A stretch of DNA of 32,056 nucleotides from NCBI GenBank assembly GCA_029251475.1, contig JAQXDF010000016.1:1-32056 (forward strand), written 5' to 3'. Origin of the DNA: Rickettsiaceae bacterium (GTDB lineage: Bacteria > Pseudomonadota > Alphaproteobacteria > Rickettsiales > Rickettsiaceae). A program made the translations under genes and the position numbers. Below are positions 22,647-26,647 of this stretch, one piece after another. Under the pieces are notes generated by a model. That model was not told the DNA's origin and did not search any database. It was given only the letters and a program-made list of their open reading frames with translations. Each line of letters starts with the position of its first letter. Within the stretch, counting starts at the first letter, position 1.

Positions 22647-22673
22647 AATGTATTTTTATTTTCCTATTTCCTG

Positions 22674-22729
22674 GGCTGCTTCATAAATTTATATAGCCAT
22701 TGCGAGTAATCAAAGATTATGAAGCAATC
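22674..22729. repeat. 56-bp repeat, copy 1 (contains 30-nt hairpin 22699-22728)
   Basis: GGCTGCTTCATAAATTTATATAGCCATTGCGAGTAATCAAAGATTATGAAGCAATC; 53/56 identical to 23694-23749; bounded by TGCTTCATAA...TTATGAAGCA. Confidence 0.9.
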
Positions 22730-22747
22730 CAAAAATTTCTGCACCAT

Positions 22748-23320
22748 TTAGACCAATAATTTACTAGTAATTCCTGAAGCTGTTAACTTAGAACTATCAA
22801 ACCAATCATTATATAACTCCTTATTCATCTCAAATAAATCATTTTGCAGCTCTAAAAACTCTTCTGTTAAAAATAAATTATCTTTTCTAGTTTTTAGTCG
22901 TTTTTTTCTCTCTTCAAGCGGACAATAAATACCAATAAATTTAATATTATTTCCTTTTAAATAATCCAAATAGTACTTTGCTAATTCTGCAGAATCAGGG
23001 CCATCCAAAGCCGTATCAATTACTATACTAAATCCTAATGATAATAATTCTTGAGCCGTGGCTAGAAAGATTGATGCAACAACTTTTCTACGAGCCAATC
23101 TATTATTATTAAATAAACCTTTGAGACCATCATCCTGATTATCTGTACCAGGGATATTTTCAACAAACTGAAAATTTTTACCAAAAATTGTGCTATAAAA
23201 TTCTGCCGCTTTATCTATTTGCATATGTACAAATTTATTATTCGACTGTATGCAAATCTCCTTTGCTATGGTTGATTTTCCAGAACATGATGGTCCATTT
23301 AATATAATGACTTGATTCAT
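22748..23320 (-). CDS. P-loop kinase-like protein (chloramphenicol phosphotransferase-like/AAA family)
   Basis: QVIILNGPSCSGKSTIAKEI Walker A; GFSIVIDTALDG; IGIYCPLEERKKRLKTRKD lid-like segment. Confidence 0.75.
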   Translation of the reverse strand: MNQVIILNGPSCSGKSTIAKEICIQSNNKFVHMQIDKAAEFYSTIFGKNFQFVENIPGTDNQDDGLKGLFNNNRLARRKVVASIFLATAQELLSLGFSIVIDTALDGPDSAELAKYYLDYLKGNNIKFIGIYCPLEERKKRLKTRKDNLFLTEEFLELQNDLFEMNKELYNDWFDSSKLTASGITSKLLV

Positions 23321-23353
23321 AATCTCCTTTGCTAGTAAATTTTCCTTTTTTAG

Positions 23354-23383
23354 ATTGCCGCGGTAGCTTCGCCACCTCGCAAT
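23354..23383 (-). repeat. 30-nt hairpin repeat, diverged copy 3 (inverted relative to copies 1 and 2)
   Basis: Minus strand ATTGCGAGGTGGCGAAGCTACCGCGGCAAT; same stem/loop lengths as copies 1 and 2, flanked by GTC...CTA as in copy 2. Confidence 0.75.
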
Positions 23384-23416
23384 GACGAGGGCACGTCAAC
23401 TAATAAAGCAATTTAG

Positions 23417-23704
23417 TTAAATGACATCTTTATATAAATCTTCCCAATTTGGATTCATACTTTCTATTAATAACAACTTTTTCCTACGATCACCACCTTT
23501 AATCTGTTTTTCCCTCTCGATTGCACTATACATAGTGTTATGCAGTTCATAAAACACTAGTATTTTACAGTTATATTTTTTAGTAAAACCTTGGATCACT
23601 CCTTGTTTGTGATCATAAATTCGTTGTACAATATCAGAAGTGACCCCTGTATATAAAGTTCCATTTTTTTTATTAGTTATAATATAAACGACAGGCTGCT
23701 TCAT
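23417..23704 (-). CDS. Stand-alone GIY-YIG nuclease superfamily protein
   Basis: VYIITNKKNGTLYTGVTSDIVQRIYDHKQGVIQGFTKKYNCKILVFYE...AIEREKQIKGGDRRKKLLLIESMNPNWEDL. Confidence 0.93.
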   Translation of the reverse strand: MKQPVVYIITNKKNGTLYTGVTSDIVQRIYDHKQGVIQGFTKKYNCKILVFYELHNTMYSAIEREKQIKGGDRRKKLLLIESMNPNWEDLYKDVI

Positions 23705-23749
23705 AAATTTATATAGTCATTATGAGTAATCAAAGATTATGAAGCAATC
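23694..23749. repeat. 56-bp repeat, copy 2 (contains 30-nt hairpin 23719-23748; overlaps the GIY-YIG start codon)
   Basis: GGCTGCTTCATAAATTTATATAGTCATTATGAGTAATCAAAGATTATGAAGCAATC; 3 mismatches to copy 1, spaced exactly 1020 bp. Confidence 0.9.
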
Positions 23750-23758
23750 TAGTCAATA

Positions 23759-25408: not shown

Positions 25409-26647
25409 TTAAAAACTAGCAATAGCATTACCCGCTGCAAAACCAGAAGACCAAGCCCATTGAAAGTTATATCCTCCCAGCCATCCTGTAACATCCATGA
25501 CTTCACCTACAAAAAACAAGCCTGGAACTTTTTTAGACTCCATTGTCTTTGAAGATAATTCTTGGGTATCGACGCCGCCAGCTAATTCTTGGGTATCGAC
25601 GCCGCCAGCTGTCACTTCTGCCTTAAGATACCCTTCGCTACCACTAATAAATGCATCGAAATTATGGATTAAATACGCTATATCTTGCAATCTATTTTTA
25701 CTAAGATCTGTGATCGATTTATTAAAGTCTGGATTCAGCAATGCCAAATTGTCGACTAATCTATTAGTTAAATAGGCTTTTAGATAGTTTGTCACAGTTT
25801 GCTTGCTGTTTTTATCAGCCACAAACAAGTCCTTTAGATTTATTTTAGGCAATAAATCTATTGATATTTTTTCATCTTCAAATTTCTCTAAATACGAGGA
25901 TATTTGCAAAATTGATGGACCACTTAACCCCTTATGCGTAAATAATAATCCTTCGGAAAAGCTGGTCTTATTATAATGAACAGTAGCAAAATTAGATACT
26001 CCTCTTAAATCTAGAAACAAATCCTTTTGCCCCTCAGAAACAATAAGAGGAACCAAGGCAGGCCTGGTGTTTATAATATTTAAGCAAAATTTCTTAGCAA
26101 TTCGATAACCAAAGTCACTAGCTCCTATTTTTGGAATAGATAACCCGCCGGTTGCAATAATAAGATTATTGCTGCTAAATACACCTTGATTGCTTTGAAC
26201 TATAAATGATTCGTTTTTTACGATATCTGTAATCTCACAAGATAATTCGATCTGAACTTTGGCCTTGTTGCACATATCAATTAGCATATCAATAATCTGC
26301 TTTGAAGAACCGTCGCAAAATAATTGCCCTAAAGTTTTTTCATGATACGCTATGCCATAAGCCTCTACCATACTAATAAAATCGTGCTGCGTATATTGTG
26401 ACAAAGCCGACTTTACAAAATGGGGATTGCGACTAAGAAAATTAGCGCTAGTTGTGTTGATATTAGTAAAATTACATCTACCACCTCCAGAAATACGAAT
26501 TTTTTCTCCTATTTTACTAGTATGCTCAACAAGAAGAACCTTCTTGCCATTTTTTCCAGCGCTAATTGCTGCCATAAGCCCTGCAGCTCCGGCACCTACT
26601 ACTATAACATCGTACATAAATTGTTTATTGGGTATATGACATAACAA
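25409..26647 (-). CDS. NAD(P)/FAD-dependent oxidoreductase, HI0933/BaiN-like flavoprotein
   Basis: VIVVGAGAAGLMAAISAGKNGKKVLLVEH, GEKIRISGGGRCNFTN, LLFTHKGLSGPSILQIS, PGLFFVGEVMDVTGWLGGYNFQWAWSSG. Confidence 0.93.
   Translation of the reverse strand: MLCHIPNKQFMYDVIVVGAGAAGLMAAISAGKNGKKVLLVEHTSKIGEKIRISGGGRCNFTNINTTSANFLSRNPHFVKSALSQYTQHDFISMVEAYGIAYHEKTLGQLFCDGSSKQIIDMLIDMCNKAKVQIELSCEITDIVKNESFIVQSNQGVFSSNNLIIATGGLSIPKIGASDFGYRIAKKFCLNIINTRPALVPLIVSEGQKDLFLDLRGVSNFATVHYNKTSFSEGLLFTHKGLSGPSILQISSYLEKFEDEKISIDLLPKINLKDLFVADKNSKQTVTNYLKAYLTNRLVDNLALLNPDFNKSITDLSKNRLQDIAYLIHNFDAFISGSEGYLKAEVTAGGVDTQELAGGVDTQELSSKTMESKKVPGLFFVGEVMDVTGWLGGYNFQWAWSSGFAAGNAIASF
25557..25610. repeat. Perfect 27-bp tandem duplication inside the flavoprotein gene
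   Basis: AATTCTTGGGTATCGACGCCGCCAGCT twice in tandem; encodes AGGVDTQEL twice. Confidence 0.98.

What the first reader, a model, noticed from the sequence alone, without database searches (positions are those of the whole stretch)
22674..23749. GIY-YIG nuclease gene whose start codon lies inside a repeat, with a gene-less copy of the same repeat 1020 bp away: candidate repeat-plus-nuclease mobile unit
Seen: on the minus strand copy 2 (23694-23749) ends ...TTTATGAAGCAGCC and this ATG AAG CAG CC is the start of the GIY-YIG ORF (MKQP...). Copy 1 (22674-22729) carries the same ATG AAG CAG CC, but it runs MKQPRK-stop (22664-22684), like a solo 5' end without the gene. The diverged hairpin copy 3 (23354-23383) sits just past the GIY-YIG stop codon in the opposite orientation, so inverted copies bracket the nuclease gene. 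Known: REP elements can be mobilised by RAYT (Y1-HUH) transposases, and GIY-YIG enzymes include homing endonucleases. Inference: this stand-alone GIY-YIG protein may act on, or spread with, these palindromic repeats.
Basis: partly seen in the sequence, partly recalled or inferred. Interest (0 to 1): 0.75.

Follow-up and report, generated by a model that had tools for sequence, protein, structure and literature searches.

The report
Repeat-framed GIY-YIG nuclease cassette in operon
A tiny DNA-cutting enzyme gene framed by short palindromic repeats has landed inside a respiratory operon of a Rickettsia-like bacterium, and the same enzyme family is framed by matching repeats in many unrelated bacteria, which makes it the best candidate partner for a repeat class thought to have no enzyme.

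Summary
The 56-bp repeat is real (two copies, 95% identical, unique in this genome). Its 3' part and "copy 3" are members of a widespread REP class, the CGTC-tagged palindromes, (C)GTCATTGCGAG…GCAATCC. The two repeats enclose a 1.1-kb insertion (GIY-YIG gene, REP, kinase gene) between nuoC and nuoD; eleven same-genus relatives have a compact, repeat-free junction. The association is general. In 80 GIY-YIG loci from several phyla, 74/78 genes have a CGTC REP within 200 bp and 58/78 on both sides, against 15% and 1.5% of other genes nearby. REP type tracks one protein position just after the catalytic glutamate (Gly with ATTGCGAG REPs; Trp/Tyr/Phe with long-stem REPs): 84/84 loci in the discovery set, 52 of 53 informative held-out loci, the other mixed. 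This fits a nuclease that recognises its own REP. From memory, the Ssn ssDNA nucleases of Neisseria (2025) belong here; the N. gonorrhoeae homologue (58% identical) is flanked by dRS3 repeats. So this is a new member of a known kind. The unresolved part is whether the nuclease spreads the REPs: insertions are shown, cleavage and transposition are not. The start codon inside a repeat is a local detail.

The parts
23417..23704 (-). Stand-alone GIY-YIG nuclease gene, 95 aa; catalytic-type residues Y7, Y18, R28, H32, E65, N84 intact; recognition-type motif K69-G70-G71-D72-R73
   Evidence: ORF; PF01541; invariant columns; AlphaFold2 model pLDDT 96.1 with GIY-YIG structures as best PDB matches
23694..23749 (.). 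56-bp repeat copy 2 (nuoC side); holds a degenerate ATTGCGAG-type REP (23716-23749, + strand, GTCATTATGAG...GCAATC) plus the nuclease start codon
   Evidence: hairpin z = -3.8 as ssDNA
22674..22729 (.). 56-bp repeat copy 1 (nuoD side); ATTGCGAG-type REP at 22696-22730 (+) plus a copy of the first 11 nt of the nuclease gene (MKQPRK-stop)
23353..23387 (-).
22748..23320 (-). CPT/AAA_18/AAA_33-type P-loop kinase gene carried in the same insertion; role unknown
   Evidence: ORF; Pfam PF07931 49.7 bits; no homologue in the other fetched loci
22655..23757 (.). Approximate extent of the insertion between nuoD (start 22646) and nuoC (stop 23759); absent from 11 same-genus relatives
   Evidence: junction comparison

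Best explanation
This is a REP-nuclease cassette: a small GIY-YIG nuclease (related to the Neisseria Ssn family) together with its cognate CGTC-tagged REP palindromes, inserted with a passenger kinase gene between nuoC and nuoD. Shown: the insertion; the framing of the gene by REPs; the family-wide association; and the match between REP type and a protein motif beside the active site. Inferred: the protein recognises its own REP hairpin, probably as single-stranded DNA at forks or during DNA uptake, and nicks it; the broken, hairpin-bearing ends are repaired by recombination or template switching, which now and then copies a REP or the whole REP-nuclease-REP cassette to a new site. Copy 1 is most simply a duplicate of copy 2 (REP plus gene start), either a remnant of a tandem second cassette or a by-product of the insertion.
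For: Framing: 74/78 GIY-YIG genes have a CGTC REP within 200 bp and 58/78 on both sides, against 112/752 and 11/752 other genes in the same loci. A sequence-agnostic test gives the same: a repeat of score >=18 between the two 250-bp flanks in 56/78 genes and 2/570 control windows. Strict long-stem REPs: 100 of 181 lie within 300 bp of the gene, 0 in reversed sequence. Nearest REPs are inverted around the gene in 84/106. Specificity: residue 71 Gly with ATTGCGAG REPs 41/41 and aromatic with long-stem REPs 43/43 (one of the 41, L075, is a Ser-Asn-Arg variant of the Gly motif); held-out alphaproteobacterial loci 14/14 and 38/39, the exception mixed. Genome level: CGTCATTGCGAG present three times or more in 12/15 genomes with a Gly-motif nuclease and 11/241 genomes without any match (Fisher 4e-12). 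Insertion: 11 of 11 readable same-genus junctions are empty. In another genus 3 genomes have REP-gene-REP between tuf and an epimerase gene; gene-less sister sites carry no ATTGCGAG REP there, and one (L232) is bare apart from a short leader. In L121 and L128 the first 54 and 34 nt of the downstream gene (an epimerase; nuoE) are duplicated around the cassette. Tandem cassettes occur in L064. Fold.
Against: No target duplication separable from the REP at the window locus, and clear long duplications in only 2 of 102 two-sided loci. REP-rich genomes without a detected nuclease (G016, G104, G276). The protein is one nuclease domain with no known strand-transfer activity. The window genome has only two exact CGTCATTGCGAG copies, so the REP is not proliferating here. 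The specificity match could reflect few ancestral splits: the best tree needs 7 switches, but AU p = 0.10 for a single Gly clade. Empty sister sites could be losses rather than sites before insertion.
Confidence: 0.72

Rival explanations
1. Ssn-like regulator or defence nuclease that uses REPs as dispersed cutting sites, for example to modulate natural transformation. REPs spread by other means and the nuclease gene is only kept near its targets.
For: From memory, Neisseria Ssn cuts ssDNA at its repeat and modulates transformation. The N. gonorrhoeae homologue (L095) is 58% identical and flanked by dRS3. REPs persist without a nuclease in some genomes.
Against: Does not by itself explain why the gene is framed tightly on both sides (median 26 and 17.5 nt) or why gene and REPs appear and vanish together at a site.
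Confidence: 0.45
2. Homing-endonuclease model: the nuclease cuts REPs that already exist and is copied into them by repair, so that the gene comes to lie inside a REP or REP dimer.
For: Gene framed by REPs in inverted orientation in 84/106; free-standing GIY-YIG homing enzymes exist (own knowledge).
Against: Empty sister sites have no REP: 0 of 11 at nuoC-nuoD, and no ATTGCGAG REP at the gene-less tuf-epimerase sites.
Confidence: 0.15
3. The gene is a passive passenger in REP-rich intergenic DNA, and the 56-bp pair is a local duplication.
For: The 56-mer is unique to this locus.
Against: Other genes in the same REP-bearing loci are framed in only 1.5% of cases, and REP type tracks the protein motif.
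Confidence: 0.05

Closest known systems
Ssn, site-specific ssDNA GIY-YIG nucleases of Neisseria (Nat Commun 2025; recalled from memory, paper not held)
   Same: Same small GIY-YIG family; the N. gonorrhoeae homologue L095 is 58% identical and flanked by dRS3 palindromes
   Different: The window protein has the Gly-type motif and ATTGCGAG REPs, while Neisseria has W-x-R-x-W and ATTCCC REPs. Here the gene is a recent insertion in an operon with a passenger kinase. Cleavage untested.
CGTC-tagged REPs (Di Nocera 2013, PMC3733652; includes Rickettsia RPE-4 and RPE-6 and Neisseria dRS3)
   Same: CGTC tag, stem starting AT, CCA-like tail, inverted pairs; alphaproteobacterial distribution
   Different: That paper states that CGTC REPs lack a dedicated transposase; here they frame a GIY-YIG gene family. 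In the window genome they are rare and partly degenerate.
RAYT / REPtron (Y1-HUH TnpA-REP with GTAG REPs)
   Same: Single-domain nuclease gene framed by inverted REPs that match it, with gene-less REPs elsewhere
   Different: Unrelated catalytic fold (GIY-YIG, not HUH) and a different REP tag
UPF0213 / YhbQ-like GIY-YIG proteins (PDB 1zg2, 1ywl)
   Same: Nearest solved relatives by sequence and fold
   Different: Function unknown; no repeat association was tested for them here

Membership tests
GIY-YIG nuclease | Pfam GIY-YIG domain above cut-off | tested here: met
   62 bits against a cut-off of 22.6
GIY-YIG nuclease | Catalytic Tyr/Tyr/Arg/Glu/Asn retained | tested here: met
   Y7, Y18, R28, E65, N84 invariant
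GIY-YIG nuclease | GIY-YIG fold | tested here: met
   Model pLDDT 96.1, best matches 1zg2, 1ywl, Slx1, UvrC N-domain
Ssn family | Close homologue of the Neisseria protein that lies beside the dRS3 repeat | tested here: met
   L095, 58% identity, dRS3-type REPs within 300 bp; that this gene is the published Ssn is from memory
Ssn family | Cuts ssDNA specifically at its repeat | not testable with these tools
   needs purified protein
CGTC-tagged REP | CGTC tag + stem opening with AT + CC(A) tail | tested here: met
   Met by copy 3 (CGTCATTGC...GCAATCT, tail diverged); copies 1 and 2 have a GCC or GTC tag
CGTC-tagged REP | High copy number in the host genome | tested here: not met
   Two exact CGTCATTGCGAG in G000; many in relatives (G019 21, G034 77)
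RAYT / REPtron | Y1-HUH transposase and GTAG REPs | tested here: not met
   GIY-YIG protein, CGTC-type REPs
Homing endonuclease | Empty allele carries the target site | tested here: not met
   No REP in 11 empty nuoC-nuoD junctions
Insertion sequence / MITE | Terminal inverted repeats with target-site duplication | tested here: inconclusive
   REPs inverted around the gene; long duplications outside the REPs in only 2 of 102 loci; in the window only the 56-bp direct repeat that itself contains the REP

The most novel reading that the evidence does not exclude
Stand-alone GIY-YIG (Ssn-type) nucleases are the dedicated partners that spread CGTC-tagged REPs, the missing counterpart of RAYTs. They move REP-nuclease-REP cassettes into new sites and read their own REP with a short specificity motif (Gly or aromatic at position 71) next to the catalytic glutamate.
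Probability: 0.4. Interest if true: 0.85.

Novelty: new member of a known kind. Interest (0 to 1): 0.62.

Why it matters
CGTC REPs are short repeats found mainly in alphaproteobacteria, and their survey paper concluded that they lack a dedicated enzyme (PMC3733652). A nuclease family whose genes are framed by, and matched in type to, these REPs across phyla turns that open question into a bench test. The one-position code (Gly against Trp/Tyr/Phe) gives a direct prediction of which enzyme reads which repeat, also useful for choosing sequence-specific ssDNA nucleases.

Tried and rejected
Start codon in REP as a family rule: rejected (9/106). The 56-mer as a genome-wide repeat: rejected. Kinase as a regular cassette partner: no homologue in the other loci. 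Homing into existing REPs: not supported by the empty sites. Long target duplications as a general hallmark: only 2 of 102; the masked direct-repeat excess over controls is modest and partly shared by inverted repeats. Independence of the REP/motif switches: best tree 7 joint switches but only 1 on well-supported branches, AU p = 0.10, so not claimed. The Ssn paper was sought by DOI and by phrase and is not held. A relaxed hairpin search missed the ATTGCGAG type because its stems are imperfect.

Full report
What is there. The window is a contig of a 1.2-Mb genome; the named record closest to its nuclease is a Rickettsiaceae MAG. The 56-mer core occurs nowhere else in the genome.

The repeats are REPs. 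The 3' 34 nt of each 56-mer and the whole of copy 3 fit (C)GTCATTGCGAG...GCAATC, copy 2 with two changes. This is the CGTC-tagged superfamily of Di Nocera et al. 2013: CGTC tag, stems opening with AT, tails near CCA, mainly in alphaproteobacteria, including Rickettsia RPE-4 and RPE-6 and Neisseria dRS3. [quoted passage not shown] The rest of the 56-mer is an outer stem (TGCTTCATAA/TTATGAAGCA), so the whole folds as one imperfect hairpin; I read it as a decayed head-to-head REP pair (inference). The first 11 nt of the nuclease gene lie inside copy 2, so copy 1 carries a gene-start remnant.

It is an insertion. In eleven same-genus genomes with a readable junction, nuoC stop and the nuoD FGPQ motif are 55-218 nt apart with no nuclease; the window has 1145 nt. 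The closest homologues (69-73% identical) sit in other contexts: near autotransporter-like genes and other unrelated genes in G007 (L038) and G019 (L005). A gain in this lineage is the simple reading; loss in all relatives is possible but less economical.

The association is general. 80 loci from a genome-wide scan (several proteobacterial classes, Planctomycetota, Nitrospirota, Elusimicrobia, Chlorobi, Firmicutes, Bipolaricaulota) were tested. Of 78 genes with enough flank, 74 have a CGTC REP within 200 bp and 58 have one on both sides; for 752 other genes in the same loci the numbers are 112 and 11. A test that assumes no repeat sequence agrees: 56/78 against 2/570. The nearest REPs are inverted around the gene in 84 of 106 two-sided cases, and sit a median of 26 and 17.5 nt from the matched gene ends. 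The window's heads-inward arrangement is the second commonest (22/106). In the class, 12 of 15 genomes with a Gly-motif nuclease have three or more CGTCATTGCGAG copies, against 11 of 241 genomes with no match to the protein. Exceptions such as G016 (322 copies, no nuclease found) show that the REPs can exist without it, or that assemblies lose the gene.

REP type tracks the protein. Genes framed by the asymmetric ATTGCGAG REP encode ..EKQIKxGSRxxK.., and genes framed by REPs with long perfect stems encode ..EKxxKxWxRxWK..: 41/41 and 43/43 (L075, with Ser-Asn-Arg, was counted with the Gly type). I fixed the rule (residue aligned to window position 71: Gly, or Trp/Tyr/Phe) and applied it to new alphaproteobacterial loci L118-L205: 14/14 informative Gly genes have ATTGCGAG REPs; 38/39 informative aromatic genes have long-stem REPs and the other has both; 28 predicted genes had no REP by these criteria and 7 could not be typed. 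In the predicted structure the position is the turn after the helix that carries the catalytic Glu65, a sensible place for DNA reading (inference). On the best tree built without these columns REP type and motif switch together 7 times, but the 95-aa tree is weak and a single origin of the Gly type is not rejected (AU p 0.10).

Signs of movement. In one alphaproteobacterial genus, 3 of about 27 genomes carry REP-gene-REP between tuf and an epimerase gene; gene-less sites have no ATTGCGAG REP there, and L232 is bare apart from a short leader. In L121 the first 54 nt of the epimerase gene, and in L128 the first 34 nt of nuoE, are repeated on both sides of the cassette, so that the downstream gene stays whole. 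These look like long target duplications but are rare (2/102). L064 has two cassettes in tandem, which suggests how copy 1 in the window, REP plus gene start without a gene, may have arisen.

Relation to what is known. From memory, a 2025 paper described Ssn, GIY-YIG nucleases that cut ssDNA at a repeated sequence in Neisseria and have thousands of homologues with their own target sequences; it is not in the library and I could not check how far it covers REPs or movement. The N. gonorrhoeae homologue here is 58% identical and lies among dRS3 repeats. I therefore call the finding a new member of that kind. What I did not find in the searched library is the link to the CGTC REP superfamily, the residue-71 rule, and insertion of whole cassettes with duplication of gene starts. 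Cleavage, and any causal role in spreading the REPs, remain untested.

Noticed in passing
G000:C24:27859-27870 (L003 about 1430-1440): The only other exact CGTCATTGCGAG in the genome overlaps the apparent start of uvrC, the genome's only other GIY-YIG gene.
   Followed up: partly
G157 (12 matches), G374 and G327 (8 each): Single genomes hold many stand-alone GIY-YIG paralogues; those fetched from G157 lie near REPs of different types, suggesting several nuclease-REP pairs side by side.
   Followed up: partly
L136, L143, L156, L172, L173, L180, L181: Genes with W-[SP]-R or Y-P-R motifs tend to lie by REPs with a CTTG loop, perhaps a finer level of the specificity code.
   Followed up: no
L008 (964-1950): A Trp-motif GIY-YIG gene is flanked by four copies of a 174-nt repeat instead of simple REPs.
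   Followed up: no
window 25553-25606: A tandem 27-bp duplication (AGATAATTCTTGGGTATCGACGCCGCC) lies inside the flavoprotein-like ORF 25409-26647 and duplicates GGVDTQELA in frame.
   Followed up: no
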